From NCBI GenBank assembly GCA_025964795.1, contig JAOPYC010000189.1:1-64000 (forward strand): a stretch of 64,000 bases of DNA. Direction: 5' to 3'. The notes beneath the pieces are model-generated. The model was not told the DNA's origin, made no database searches, and saw only the letters and a program-made list of their open reading frames with translations. Every line of letters starts with the position of its first letter. Position 1 is the stretch's first letter. The translations under genes were made by a program, and so were the position numbers. This stretch comes from Marmoricola sp. Its GTDB lineage: Bacteria; Actinomycetota; Actinomycetes; Propionibacteriales; Nocardioidaceae. Of this stretch, positions 58,039-64,000 are shown piece by piece.

Positions 58039-59727
58039 CTACCTGACGGTATGCGGCGACGTGGGAATCTGCTCGGTGCCCTGCGCGCCGGCGAGGTACT
58101 CATGGACCAGGCGTACGGCGATCGCGCCCTCACCGACGGCGGAGGCCACGCGCTTGACCGAGCCACTGCGTACATCCCCAGCGGCGAAGACACCGGGCCG
58201 CGAGGTCTCCAGCATGTCAGTACCGGGTGCGGTGCCGGTGAGGACGAAGCCACGCCTGTCCAAGACGATCTGCTCCTCAAGCCAGGCCGTGTGCGGCACC
58301 GCGCCGATCAGGACGAACAATGCGGTGGTGGGGACCTCGGCCCGTTCATCGGTGTCGAGGTTGCGGATCACGACGCTCTCCAGGGCGTCGTCTCCACGGA
58401 GTTCTTCGACTTCTGACTCTCGCCAGACCCGGATCGAGGGTGCGTGCAGGATGCGCTCAGTCAGGTAGTGGGACATGTCGCGGTTCAAGTCGTCGTGGCG
58501 GATCACCAGATGGACCGCCGACGCCCGTGTGGAGAGGAAGACCGCCGCCTGCCCGGCGGAGTTGCCGCCTCCAACGACAGTCACGGGATCTCCTCGGCAC
58601 AGCTGGGCCTCGGTCTCGGTGGCCGCGTAGTAGACGCTCGGCGCCTCGAGGTGCTCCAAGCCGGGGGCCTCCAGCCGACGATACGTGGCGCCGGTGGCCA
58701 GCAGGACGGCGCGCGCACTCAGCTCCTCTCCGTCGGTCAGCCGCAGCACATGTCGACCGTCGACGAGATCAAGGGACGCCGCCTCACCGGGGATGGTGAA
58801 GTCGGCGCCGAACCGCCGGGCCTGGACTACAGCTCGGTCAGCCAGCTCGCCGCCGGAGATGCCGACAGGAAAGCCGAGGTAGTTCTCGATCCGTGACGAT
58901 GTCGCCGCCTGTCCGCCTGTTGCCGAGGCATCGAGCACAACGGTCGCCAGGCCTTCCGAGGCTGCGTAGACCGCTGCCGCGAGACCGGCGGGTCCGGCCC
59001 CCACGACCAGCACGTCGCACGTCGAGCGCGAGGCGGTTTCTCTCAGACCGAGCGGCTCGGCCAGGTCGACGTTGCTGGGGTTGCGCAGGACCCGGGTCCC
59101 CTTGTAGATCACGACCGGGGTCTGGTGCCGGGTGATTCCCAGGCGCGTGAGGATTGTTTCTGCCTCCCCGTCCTGCTCGACGTCCACCCACGTGTGGGGG
59201 ATGCGGTTGCGGCTGAGGAACTCGCGGATGCGCCGCGTGTCGGCCGAGGACTTCGATCCGAGAACCCGTAGGCCCGCCCCGAGTCCCAGGTGCAGCGTCC
59301 GTCGGGCGATGAACGCTCGAAGGATCAGGTCACCGAGGCCAGGGTCTTCGGTCACTGCCTCCTTGAGGCCCTCGATCGACACATCCAAGACACCGACGTC
59401 CTCCCGCGCGATGGCCGTCAGGTACATCGCCTGACCTGTCAGGAGCGAGAGGTCGCCCAGGAACCGGCCGGGGCCGTGGACCGCGATCAAACGCAGCCCT
59501 TGGTCGGTCTCCTGGCCGACCACCACGGTGCCGGCAAGCACCACGAACAAGTCGCACTCCCGGTCGCCCTCACAGAAGAGGGTGCCGCGCGCCGGCACCT
59601 CACGCCGGGTGCCGAACCGGCTGAGCGACGCGATCTGCTCGTCAGCGAGCCGGGGGTATGCGCCGTCTGTGTTTGGCGTCTCGGGGTGGCCCTCGGCGAT
59701 GGGTTCAGACGAATTGGTCGTCGGCAT
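58039..59727 (-). CDS. Cyclic-nucleotide-binding-like / thioredoxin-reductase-like fusion without redox cysteines
   Basis: This 562-residue protein has three parts: a cNMP-binding-like domain (about 25-140), a thioredoxin-fold domain (150-230) whose active site reads LGSKSSADT instead of CxxC, and a thioredoxin-reductase-like flavoprotein domain (236-545). FAD binds at GAGPAG (243-248), NADPH at GGGNSAG (386-392), and GVFAAGDVR is the second FAD motif. Where thioredoxin reductase has CATC, this protein has VYYAAT (365-370). It therefore cannot reduce thioredoxin by the usual dithiol route. The phosphate-binding arginine of the cNMP domain is also not evident. It is the last gene of the chaperone/redox operon and overlaps the zinc-finger gene by 23 bases. 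Confidence 0.87.
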   Translation of the reverse strand: MPTTNSSEPIAEGHPETPNTDGAYPRLADEQIASLSRFGTRREVPARGTLFCEGDRECDLFVVLAGTVVVGQETDQGLRLIAVHGPGRFLGDLSLLTGQAMYLTAIAREDVGVLDVSIEGLKEAVTEDPGLGDLILRAFIARRTLHLGLGAGLRVLGSKSSADTRRIREFLSRNRIPHTWVDVEQDGEAETILTRLGITRHQTPVVIYKGTRVLRNPSNVDLAEPLGLRETASRSTCDVLVVGAGPAGLAAAVYAASEGLATVVLDASATGGQAATSSRIENYLGFPVGISGGELADRAVVQARRFGADFTIPGEAASLDLVDGRHVLRLTDGEELSARAVLLATGATYRRLEAPGLEHLEAPSVYYAATETEAQLCRGDPVTVVGGGNSAGQAAVFLSTRASAVHLVIRHDDLNRDMSHYLTERILHAPSIRVWRESEVEELRGDDALESVVIRNLDTDERAEVPTTALFVLIGAVPHTAWLEEQIVLDRRGFVLTGTAPGTDMLETSRPGVFAAGDVRSGSVKRVASAVGEGAIAVRLVHEYLAGAQGTEQIPTSPHTVR

Positions 59728-59977
59728 AGCACCATCTCCAGTTCTCCCCAGGTTCTAGGGAGCCGACAACCACATGACCGGCGTTGGCAGCGTGGGCGCG
59801 GGCGTGCCGCATGGGCGATGAGTCGCAACACCCCACCTGTCCGCAGGTGAGGCAGAGCCGGAGATGCACCCACGGCGTACCCAACCGGAGACACTCCTCG
59901 CAGCCCTTCGAGCGCGGCCGCACGGGTCGCACCAGTGCCAGGTGGACGTCTGGGACCTCACGTGGCGCGGTGCTCAT
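59705..59977 (-). CDS. UBP-type zinc finger protein
   Basis: This 90-residue protein is almost only a UBP-type zinc finger: CEEC (Cys26, Cys29), CLTCGQVGCC (Cys42, Cys45, Cys50, Cys51), then His58, His62 and His68. In eukaryotic deubiquitinases this domain binds the C-terminal GlyGly of free ubiquitin. Bacteria of this kind lack ubiquitin, so the ligand must differ, perhaps a C-terminal peptide. The ATG overlaps the thioredoxin stop (ATGA) and the end overlaps the oxidoreductase gene, so all three are translated together. Confidence 0.87.
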   Translation of the reverse strand: MSTAPREVPDVHLALVRPVRPRSKGCEECLRLGTPWVHLRLCLTCGQVGCCDSSPMRHARAHAANAGHVVVGSLEPGENWRWCYADDQFV

Positions 59978-60429
59978 GCTCTTGCCCCGAGCTCGGTCTG
60001 CAGCCATGTCCGCAGCGTCGCTATCGGCGCGGCGCCCACCTGCTGGTCGAGGATCTCGCCTTCGTTGAAGAGCAGCAGGGTTGGGATGGACATGATGTTG
60101 AACCTCCGGCTCACCTGAGGGTTCTCGTCGGTGTTGACCTTGACGAGCTTCAGCTGCCCGGCCATCTCACCTGTCAGCTGTTCCAGCGCTGGGCTGAGCG
60201 TTCTGCAGGGACCGCACCAAGGGGCCCAGATGTCGACCAGCACGGGGATTGTCGCCCTCTCCACGACCTCCGTGAAGTCCGCGTCGGTCGCATCAGCGAT
60301 CCAACCCAAGGGAGAGTGACACGCGCCGCATCGGGGAGCTCCGCGCGCGGCGGCCGGCACCCGGTTCTTGGTCTGGCAGCTCGGACACACGACGACGCGT
60401 CGGGACGGGTCCCGCTTCTCGGTCGTCAT
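59974..60429 (-). CDS. trxC: Thioredoxin 2 type, with zinc ribbon
   Basis: This 151-residue thioredoxin has an N-terminal zinc ribbon (Cys15, Cys18, Cys34, Cys37), as in TrxC, followed by the thioredoxin fold with the active site WCGPC at 71-75 and the cis-proline in SIPTLLLF. In E. coli TrxC is induced by oxidative stress and the zinc site modulates activity. The ATG overlaps the clpB stop (ATGA), linking reduction of thiols to disaggregation in one operon. Confidence 0.92.
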   Translation of the reverse strand: MTTEKRDPSRRVVVCPSCQTKNRVPAAARGAPRCGACHSPLGWIADATDADFTEVVERATIPVLVDIWAPWCGPCRTLSPALEQLTGEMAGQLKLVKVNTDENPQVSRRFNIMSIPTLLLFNEGEILDQQVGAAPIATLRTWLQTELGARA

Positions 60430-63059: not shown

Positions 63060-63367
63060 CGGTCTTCTCCTGCCTGGCGGTGGCGGTGCATGCGCTCGAG
63101 CTGCTCGATCCGGTCGAGCAGGTCGATGACCACTCCGATCGCGGCGTAGTTCAGATTGAGTCCCTGCCGCAGGCGCTGGACCCGGGACATCGCGCGCACC
63201 TCGATGGTCTCGAACCACAGGTCACCTCCTGCGTCACGTGTCGCCTCGAGCAGGCCGAGCGACACCAGCCGCCGGATCAGCTCCGGGTGGACCCCGGTCA
63301 GACGGGCATAGGTGTCCAGTCCCAGCCGGCTGGGACGGGCGAGGGCGTAGGTGGTCGTGGCCTTCAT
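63050..63367 (-). CDS. MerR-like chaperone modulator (CbpM type)
   Basis: This 105-residue protein has a MerR-like helix-turn-helix (YARLTGVHPELIRRLVSLGLLEA) and a C-terminal helical region with LDRIEQLERMHR. In this position after a DnaJ/CbpA-like gene it is most likely CbpM, which binds CbpA and inhibits it. An HspR-like repressor is the alternative, but the sequence is short and lacks the usual HspR start. The ATG at 63367 overlaps the dnaJ/cbpA stop (ATGA). Confidence 0.8.
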   Translation of the reverse strand: MKATTTYALARPSRLGLDTYARLTGVHPELIRRLVSLGLLEATRDAGGDLWFETIEVRAMSRVQRLRQGLNLNYAAIGVVIDLLDRIEQLERMHRHRQAGEDRWT

Positions 63368-64000
63368 CGGACCCTCCTGGCATCGAACGTGGAGGTGTTG
63401 CGCAGCTCTTCGAAGAGTCGCCGCTCCTCTGGTGAGAGCGAGGGCGGCATCTTGATCTGCGTCTCGGCGTACAGGTCACCAGGCTCGCCCCTGCGGTTGG
63501 GCAGACCCCGGCCCTTGAGGCGGAGCCGACGTCCGCTGGAAGTGCCGGTAGGGACACTGACGGTGGCCGGTCCGCCGGGGGTGTCGATGCTGATCGTCGC
63601 TCCCAGTGCCGCCTCCCACGGTGCCAGCGGCAGAAGCACCTGCAGGTCGCGGCCGTTGAGCCGGTAGCGAGAATGAGGAGCGATCCGCACGACGAGGTAC
63701 AGGTCGCCGGCCTCGGCGCCGCCCGTTCCGCGGCCCCCCTGTCCGCGCAACCGGATTCGCTGACCGTCGACGACCCCGGCCGGGATGGTCACATCGAGCG
63801 TCCGTGGCCCATCCGGGCCGCTGATCGTCAGGCTGCGTTGCGTTCCCCGGTAGGCCTCCTCGAGGGTGACCTCCATCTCGGTCTCGTGGTCTCCACCGGG
63901 GACCGGTCCCCAGCCGCCCCGCTCCCGGGAGCCGAACATCCCGCCGAGAAGGTCCTCGAGGTCGATGTCGTCGCCGAAGTCGAAGCGGGCTCCACCGGTG
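63364..64000 (-). CDS. DnaJ/CbpA-like co-chaperone, partial (C-terminal domains)
   Basis: This gene runs off the right end of the window; 212 codons are seen. The visible part holds the end of the Gly/Phe-rich region (DIDLEDLLGGMFG), then the two beta-barrel substrate-binding domains (VTLEEAYRGTQRSLTI, then DVTIPAGVVDGQRIRLRGQG and LPLAPWEAALGATI) and the C-terminal dimer motif. The CxxCxGxG zinc-finger repeats of DnaJ are absent between the barrels, so it is CbpA-type. The J domain lies outside the window. The stop overlaps cbpM. Confidence 0.9.
   Translation of the reverse strand, partial: TGGARFDFGDDIDLEDLLGGMFGSRERGGWGPVPGGDHETEMEVTLEEAYRGTQRSLTISGPDGPRTLDVTIPAGVVDGQRIRLRGQGGRGTGGAEAGDLYLVVRIAPHSRYRLNGRDLQVLLPLAPWEAALGATISIDTPGGPATVSVPTGTSSGRRLRLKGRGLPNRRGEPGDLYAETQIKMPPSLSPEERRLFEELRNTSTFDARRVR

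What the first reader, a model, noticed from the sequence alone, without database searches (positions are those of the whole stretch)
58039..64000. Translationally coupled chaperone and thiol-redox operon: CbpA, CbpM, ClpB, TrxC, UBP zinc finger, cNMP/TrxR-like flavoprotein
All six genes are on one strand and every junction overlaps. The set joins protein disaggregation, a zinc-ribbon thioredoxin, a ubiquitin-binding-type zinc finger and a flavoprotein with a regulatory domain. Each family is known, but together they suggest an unstudied route that recognises C-terminal peptides (UBP finger), reduces misfolded proteins and hands them to ClpB. The functional link is inference from gene order.
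Basis: partly seen in the sequence, partly recalled or inferred. Interest (0 to 1): 0.75.

Follow-up and report, generated by a model that had tools for sequence, protein, structure and literature searches.

The report
Mobile second chaperone operon with thioredoxin tail
Some actinobacteria carry a second, transferable set of genes for pulling apart clumped proteins, and some copies, including this one, end in a thioredoxin, a ubiquitin-type zinc finger and an unusual flavoprotein that lacks the cysteine pair a thioredoxin reductase needs.

Summary
In detail: six same-strand genes (CbpA, CbpM-like, ClpB, zinc-ribbon thioredoxin, zf-UBP finger, cNMP/TrxR-like flavoprotein), every junction overlapping. 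The operon is longer: grpE and dnaK lie outside the window. It is a second chaperone set: the genome has another ClpB (55%) and DnaK (52-67%). Operon-type ClpB is a separate lineage, in 39 of 394 class genomes. The core dnaK-grpE-dnaJ-CbpM-clpB is fixed (36 of 36 loci fetched); the tail varies, 13 of 40 loci having all eight genes. Relatives are mobile: 10 of 11 plasmid loci fetched carry the eight genes in order, and 9.7 kb is 93.5% identical between a Gordonia contig and a Nocardia plasmid. Two parts of the proposed pathway lack sequence support. The flavoprotein has no TrxR CxxC (0 of 69). The UBP finger, though of HDAC6-like fold, has Asp where USP16 has the Arg that reads ubiquitin's C-terminus. 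I read it as a mobile stress-tolerance operon, analogous to the proteobacterial tLST but not a member; the roles of finger and flavoprotein are open.

The parts
63364..64000 (-). CbpA-type (class B, no zinc finger) J-protein, 3' part; the whole gene runs to about 64335 on the same contig
   Evidence: DnaJ_C 148 bits; full gene with HPD motif in L004
63050..63367 (-). MerR_2 family co-chaperone regulator, CbpM/DafA/HspR-like
   Evidence: MerR_2 56 bits; PDB matches CbpM 3ucs 1e-5 and DafA 9dvi 1e-3; below NCBIfam cut-offs for HspR and CbpM
60426..63059 (-). ClpB disaggregase, operon-type paralogue, full length
   Evidence: TIGR03346 1322 bits over residues 6-865; two Walker A sites; separate lineage from housekeeping ClpB
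59974..60429 (-). Thioredoxin 2 type, with N-terminal zinc ribbon and WCGPC active site
   Evidence: PF00085 and PF21352; motifs
59705..59977 (-). Stand-alone zf-UBP zinc finger
58039..59727 (-). Three-domain flavoprotein: cNMP-like, glutaredoxin-like, TrxR-like FAD/NADPH domain
59278..59655 (-). cNMP-binding-like domain (residues about 25-150) without the phosphate-cassette Arg
   Evidence: PF00027; alignment columns
59038..59277 (-). Glutaredoxin/thioredoxin-like domain (residues about 151-230), no cysteine in the window protein, invariant P204
   Evidence: order of secondary structure in the model; columns; not searched as a fold on its own
58084..59022 (-). TrxR-like FAD/NAD(P)H domain; YYAAT in place of CxxC; invariant Cys377

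Best explanation
A second, horizontally mobile Hsp70/ClpB disaggregation operon with an optional thiol/flavin tail. Shown: co-directional dnaK-grpE-cbpA-cbpM/dafA-like-clpB-trx2-UBP-flavoprotein; a ClpB lineage apart from the housekeeping one; patchy and, in relatives, plasmid-borne distribution; fixed core and variable tail. Inferred from the families: under protein-damaging stress (heat, solvent, oxidant) the unit adds disaggregation capacity. The MerR_2 protein gates the J-domain of CbpA (as CbpM or DafA do), DnaK/CbpA/GrpE feed ClpB, ClpB threads aggregates, and Trx2 (CxxC and zinc ribbon intact) reduces non-native disulfides in released chains, with electrons from the host's own reductase and not from the operon flavoprotein. 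The UBP gene and a TrxR-like gene also lie together without chaperones; the most likely role is an accessory pair in which the flavoprotein binds FAD and NAD(P)H and acts as an NAD(P)H-dependent sensor, scaffold or non-thiol reductase, with the finger as a protein-docking part. That last step is weak inference (about 0.25 on its own).
For: Eight-gene order in 46/80 named loci (UBP-selected), 13/40 ClpB-selected loci, 10/11 plasmid loci fetched. Core order in 36/36 newly fetched loci of at least 71% ClpB identity (the 65% one, L277, showed only the MerR_2 gene and clpB). Second copy: other ClpB 55%, DnaK 52-67% in the same genome. 108 operon ClpBs in one branch (local support 100), which also holds the 65% one, apart from 21 housekeeping ClpBs. 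Mobility of relatives: Tn7-like TniQ with TnsA or TniB, and a recombinase, near two Rhodococcus plasmid copies; 9,731 nt at 93.5% identity, from the YflT gene through DUF1931, between Gordonia L171 and Nocardia plasmid L219, against 80% for housekeeping clpB of two genera of one family. Motifs intact in 69 full loci: Trx CxxC 69, zinc ribbon 69, HPD 69, two Walker A 69. Stress-gene neighbours in part of 46 loci: YflT 22, DUF1931 21, Hsp20 14 and 13 (two queries), HtrA-like 2.
Against: No expression or phenotype data for this locus; the R. opacus R7 result is from passages and not mapped here. The tail is absent in 16 of 40 loci, so a shared pathway with the core is not required. UBP and flavoprotein co-occur in the 37 loci with at least 3 kb downstream (Fisher p 7e-6), but only 4-5 independent pairs exist on the tree, too few for significance. 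No HspR (HAIR) box is enriched upstream of dnaK. The window copy itself is not shown to be mobile: it is on an 89 kb contig that I did not survey for mobile genes, and none of the extra stress genes was found in L004. No thioredoxin reductase over the TIGR01292 cut-off was found in this 92%-complete draft, so the electron source for Trx2 is open.
Confidence: 0.6

Rival explanations
1. The tail is only a passenger: general stress genes placed after a chaperone core because they share a promoter, with no joint pathway.
For: Tail absent in 16 of 40 loci and partial in 11; UBP with a TrxR-like gene within 3 kb also occurs without this operon in 20 of the other 97 zf-UBP loci (my count from the table); other stress genes (YflT, DUF1931, Hsp20) come and go.
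Against: The same tail order recurs in distant genera, with equal overlap lengths in two plasmids of related genera.
Confidence: 0.3
2. The flavoprotein still feeds electrons to Trx2 by an unusual route, through its one invariant cysteine (Cys377) or directly from reduced flavin.
For: Cys377 is the only cysteine invariant in 39 of 39 aligned homologues and lies in an EAxxC motif in 68 of 68 located and in L273 by eye; FAD and NADPH motifs are kept; 18 of 39 homologues have a Cys at column 159 near the glutaredoxin-type loop, though not the window protein; no canonical thioredoxin reductase over cut-off in the draft genome.
Confidence: 0.12
3. One reading: the UBP finger reads C-terminal peptides of damaged proteins and hands them to ClpB.
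Against: The Arg of USP16 is Asp or Glu in 98 of 101 fingers and Asp in 67 of 69 operon fingers by pattern, one more by eye, one too short. The HDAC6 alignment, with a gap, puts Ser opposite its Arg, not a basic residue. USP13 and USP33 show that the fold alone does not give binding (PMC3247260 passages).
Confidence: 0.05

Closest known systems
Thermus thermophilus dnaK-grpE-dnaJ-dafA-clpB operon (gene order recalled, from no call)
   Same: Core order with a small protein between dnaJ and clpB; a solved chain named DafA matches the MerR_2 protein (9dvi, 1e-3); the Thermus DnaJ is also a class B J-protein (PMC8215388 passage).
   Different: Here it is an extra copy beside a housekeeping set, mobile in relatives, and carries trx2, UBP finger and flavoprotein.
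[quoted passage not shown]
   Same: Extra, transferable disaggregase plus thioredoxin; Hsp20 and, rarely, an HtrA-like protease near some copies; Tn7-like genes near two plasmid copies.
   Different: tLST core is dna-hsp20-clpG/clpK; here the core is dnaK-grpE-dnaJ-CbpM-clpB. UBP finger and TrxR-like flavoprotein are not among the tLST genes in the passages seen.
Actinobacterial dnaK-grpE-dnaJ-hspR operon (Streptomyces; recalled, HspR as repressor in PMC2631018 passages)
   Same: dnaK, grpE, dnaJ and a MerR-type gene in series.
   Different: No HAIR box enrichment upstream; MerR_2 protein matches CbpM and DafA structures; clpB is in the operon; J-protein without zinc finger.
Low-Mr thioredoxin reductase and AhpF
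   Different: No reductase CxxC; a cNMP-like domain at the N-terminus.
zf-UBP fingers (2ida; HDAC6, USP16, USP5)
   Same: Fold.
   Different: CCDSSP loop in place of the Arg-bearing loop; signature EPGExWxWCY.

Membership tests
ClpB | Full-length match over curated cut-off, two Walker A sites | tested here: met
   TIGR03346 1322 vs 1232 bits; 69 of 69 with two Walker A
Thioredoxin-disulfide reductase | Redox-active CxxC in the NADPH domain | tested here: not met
   0 of 69 (68 located, one by eye); YYAAT in the PDB alignment; below TIGR01292 cut-off
Thioredoxin 2 (TrxC type) | Zinc ribbon plus active-site CxxC | tested here: met
   69 of 69; the TrxC model itself is just missed, NF008229 124.3 bits vs cut-off 125
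Ubiquitin C-terminus-binding zf-UBP | zf-UBP fold | tested here: met
Ubiquitin C-terminus-binding zf-UBP | Arg equivalent to USP5 R221 (equivalence with the aligned USP16 Arg is my own knowledge) | tested here: not met
   Asp in the alignment; D/E in 98 of 101
Cyclic-nucleotide-binding domain | Phosphate-cassette Arg (recalled motif) | tested here: not met
   39 of 39 non-basic at the aligned column; the PF00027 match is met
CbpM | Glu62 that bonds the HPD His | tested here: not met
   Gly in 59 of 69 by pattern and in 3 more by eye, Glu in 1; aligned; feature from PMC4063869 passages
HspR repressor | HAIR operator at the operon | tested here: not met
DafA | DnaK-DnaJ assembly activity (recalled) | not testable with these tools
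   Sequence match only
tLST | dna-hsp20-clpG/clpK core | tested here: not met
   ClpG and ClpK models about 776 bits, cut-off 1900, for the window ClpB; no Hsp20 match in L004
tLST | Transferability | tested here: met
   Plasmid copies and 93.5% DNA identity across genera, for relatives, not for the window copy

The most novel reading that the evidence does not exclude
The finger and flavoprotein form a new kind of redox adaptor for disaggregation: an HDAC6-like UBP finger whose pocket charge is turned from Arg to Asp reads a cationic or N-terminal amine feature of damaged proteins, and the flavoprotein without a reductase cysteine pair reports NAD(P)H state to ClpB/DnaK through it. The whole unit is an actinobacterial transmissible stress-tolerance locus built on Hsp70/ClpB.
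Probability: 0.08. Interest if true: 0.85.

Novelty: new variant of a known kind. Interest (0 to 1): 0.55.

Why it matters
[quoted passage not shown] An Hsp70/ClpB unit of its own lineage in 39 of 394 sampled class genomes, on plasmids in relatives, would extend that idea to actinobacteria and to the classical bichaperone. It also gives a defined genetic setting in which to ask what stand-alone bacterial UBP fingers and TrxR-like flavoproteins without CxxC do; I saw no answer in the listings of ten searches of an open-access library.

Tried and rejected
HspR control: HAIR motif upstream of dnaK, best-match mismatches in 107 regions like those of shuffled sequence; rejected. Defence-system reading: PADLOC gave two weak hits, 0.003 and 0.006, for 4 proteins; rejected. 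Phage origin: 3 viral contigs with a UBP relative, not followed. Viral fold library: best matches E 8e-19 to phage proteins annotated as ribonucleotide reductase, query TM 0.34-0.44; not followed. VIA-align rows for the flavoprotein span residues 232-550, so the front domains are not placed by fold search. For the UBP model only the best of five was good (pLDDT 89.6; the others 55.6-75.0). Motif counts misread the UBP and Walker sites and used a narrow CxxC pattern; redone. Two of 69 flavoproteins (L142, L242) have a CxxC elsewhere in the chain, as do 3 of 76. Own-genome TrxR translations picked wrong frames; redone, where one of the four best hits (C200) shows CPYC but scores 83 bits. Promoter and terminator scan not above chance. 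Phylogeny-corrected test of UBP with flavoprotein lacked power.

The 101 UBP loci are the window's place plus 100 others from the longer list; lower-scoring, partial and some second places were not fetched. The 40 ClpB loci are the places of at least 71% identity. The 69 full loci include repeats: L107/L135, L096/L202 and L232/L236 have identical ClpB. One search left out two of 132 ClpB hits as too short. Of 87 plasmid records with a UBP match I fetched 11, all from the best 14.
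Full report
WHAT IS THERE. The six genes are as described, all on the minus strand with overlapping junctions. The window cuts the operon. On the same contig, upstream, are the rest of the cbpA gene, grpE and dnaK, so the unit is dnaK-grpE-cbpA-cbpM/dafA-like-clpB-trx2-UBP-flavoprotein. The genome has another ClpB at 55% identity (C118) and another DnaK at 52-67%, in pieces on two contigs, so this is a second chaperone set.

HOW WIDE AND HOW FIXED. Two differently chosen samples were used. 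By UBP: four of 101 actinobacterial zf-UBP loci, the window included, show all eight genes in order, and 46 of the best 80 named loci do so; five more hold all eight in another arrangement, among them Arthrobacter loci with the UBP-flavoprotein pair divergent from the chaperones; 14 show the UBP alone. By ClpB alone: in 394 class genomes the ClpB matches fall in two groups, at least 71% identity (40 places in 39 genomes, own included) and 65% or less. All 36 newly fetched places of the first group have dnaK-grpE-dnaJ-MerR_2-clpB in order, and nine have the full tail; with the four known ones, 13 of 40. Tail states of the 40 (matches by tblastn with the window proteins): all three 13; none 16; Trx plus flavoprotein 4; Trx only 3; UBP plus flavoprotein 2; flavoprotein only 1; UBP only 1. 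Three of the 40 have under 3 kb of contig after clpB. So the core is fixed and the tail is an option.

SEPARATE LINEAGE AND MOVEMENT. On a ClpB tree of 130 rows the 108 operon ClpBs lie in one branch (local support 100), with the one 65% ClpB inside it, apart from 21 housekeeping ClpBs (FastTree, no bootstrap). The window ClpB is nearest to Arsenicicoccus piscis and Nocardioides sp. CER19 (85-86% identity), of different families. The 36 genomes of the window's own family listed, two of them of its genus, each have one strong ClpB match and none is in the group of at least 71%; 51 genomes without a match are not listed there. On plasmids, 10 of 11 loci fetched carry the eight genes in order; the eleventh, Embleya L238, has the finger only. 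In L234 the flavoprotein gene looks interrupted. Two Rhodococcus copies lie near Tn7-like genes and a recombinase. A block of 9,731 nt (L171 851-10572, L219 4739-14396), from the YflT gene through DUF1931, is 93.5% identical between Gordonia jacobaea and a Nocardia farcinica plasmid; housekeeping clpB of two genera of one family is 80% identical, and the ClpB tree distances are 0.023 against 0.218.

THE CHAPERONE CORE. The J-protein has HPD (69 of 69) and no DnaJ zinc finger (0 of 69), that is, class B. ClpB keeps two Walker A sites (69 of 69). The MerR_2 protein is below the cut-offs for both HspR and CbpM, matches solved CbpM and DafA, and has Gly where CbpM has the essential Glu62 in 59 of 69 by pattern and 3 more by eye (PMC4063869 passages). 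No HspR box is enriched upstream. I recall, from no call, that Thermus thermophilus has dnaK-grpE-dnaJ-dafA-clpB; if so, this core is of that type. A possible regulator lies beside it: a MEDS plus LuxR-type protein (PF14417 138 bits, PF00196 55 bits) ends 122 bp before dnaK on the same strand. A MEDS match is found in 7 of the 69 full loci, closest in Arsenicicoccus and Nocardioides (59-60%), and in 0 of 96 zf-UBP loci without the operon; so it is local to part of the family at most.

READING. The best account is a mobile, second Hsp70/ClpB operon that adds aggregate clearance under stress, with thioredoxin repair in those copies that carry the tail. It works like tLST in outline (extra disaggregase, thioredoxin, in some copies Hsp20 or an HtrA-like protease, mobile elements; PMC8290217 passages) but fails its core-gene test. 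Second DnaKs as such are known: 19.4% of 3,247 actinobacterial genomes have more than one dnaK (PMC11019930 passage). The expression hint from R. opacus R7 is suggestive only. What the pair does is open.

LITERATURE. In the listings of ten searches of the open-access library I saw no paper on this operon; subscription papers are mostly not held. Papers PMC11019930, PMC9608346, PMC7434839, PMC2631018, PMC8290217, PMC3247260, PMC4063869 and PMC8215388 were seen as passages, not in full. PMC9608346 (Arthrobacter Helios) reports one dnaJ-grpE-dnaK operon and a separate clpB, slightly induced by drought stress; it neither supports nor opposes this reading.

Noticed in passing
L004 11843-12793 (minus strand; contig C3 about 66.8-67.8 kb, outside the window): A MEDS (DcmR-type sensory) plus LuxR-type regulator ends 122 bp before dnaK on the same strand; MEDS matches in 7 of 69 full loci and 0 of 96 zf-UBP loci without the operon.
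   Followed up: partly
55514-56641 (+) and 56846-57970 (+): A bacterial archaeo-eukaryotic release-factor-like protein (baeRF_family2) and an AI-2E family transporter lie downstream on the other strand.
   Followed up: no
L302 (own genome, contig C102): A second TrxR-like flavoprotein without CxxC; no thioredoxin reductase over the TIGR01292 cut-off was found in the 92%-complete draft.
   Followed up: partly
L215, L216, L217: Three viral contigs encode a zf-UBP relative.
   Followed up: no
L209: A MAG labelled Bifidobacterium breve holds a UBP finger 65% identical to the window's; the label may be wrong.
   Followed up: no
L218 5072-7220 and 15962-16402; L232 17395-20832: HtrA-like protease, YflT heat-stress protein, DUF1931 and two Hsp20 genes flank plasmid copies.
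   Followed up: partly
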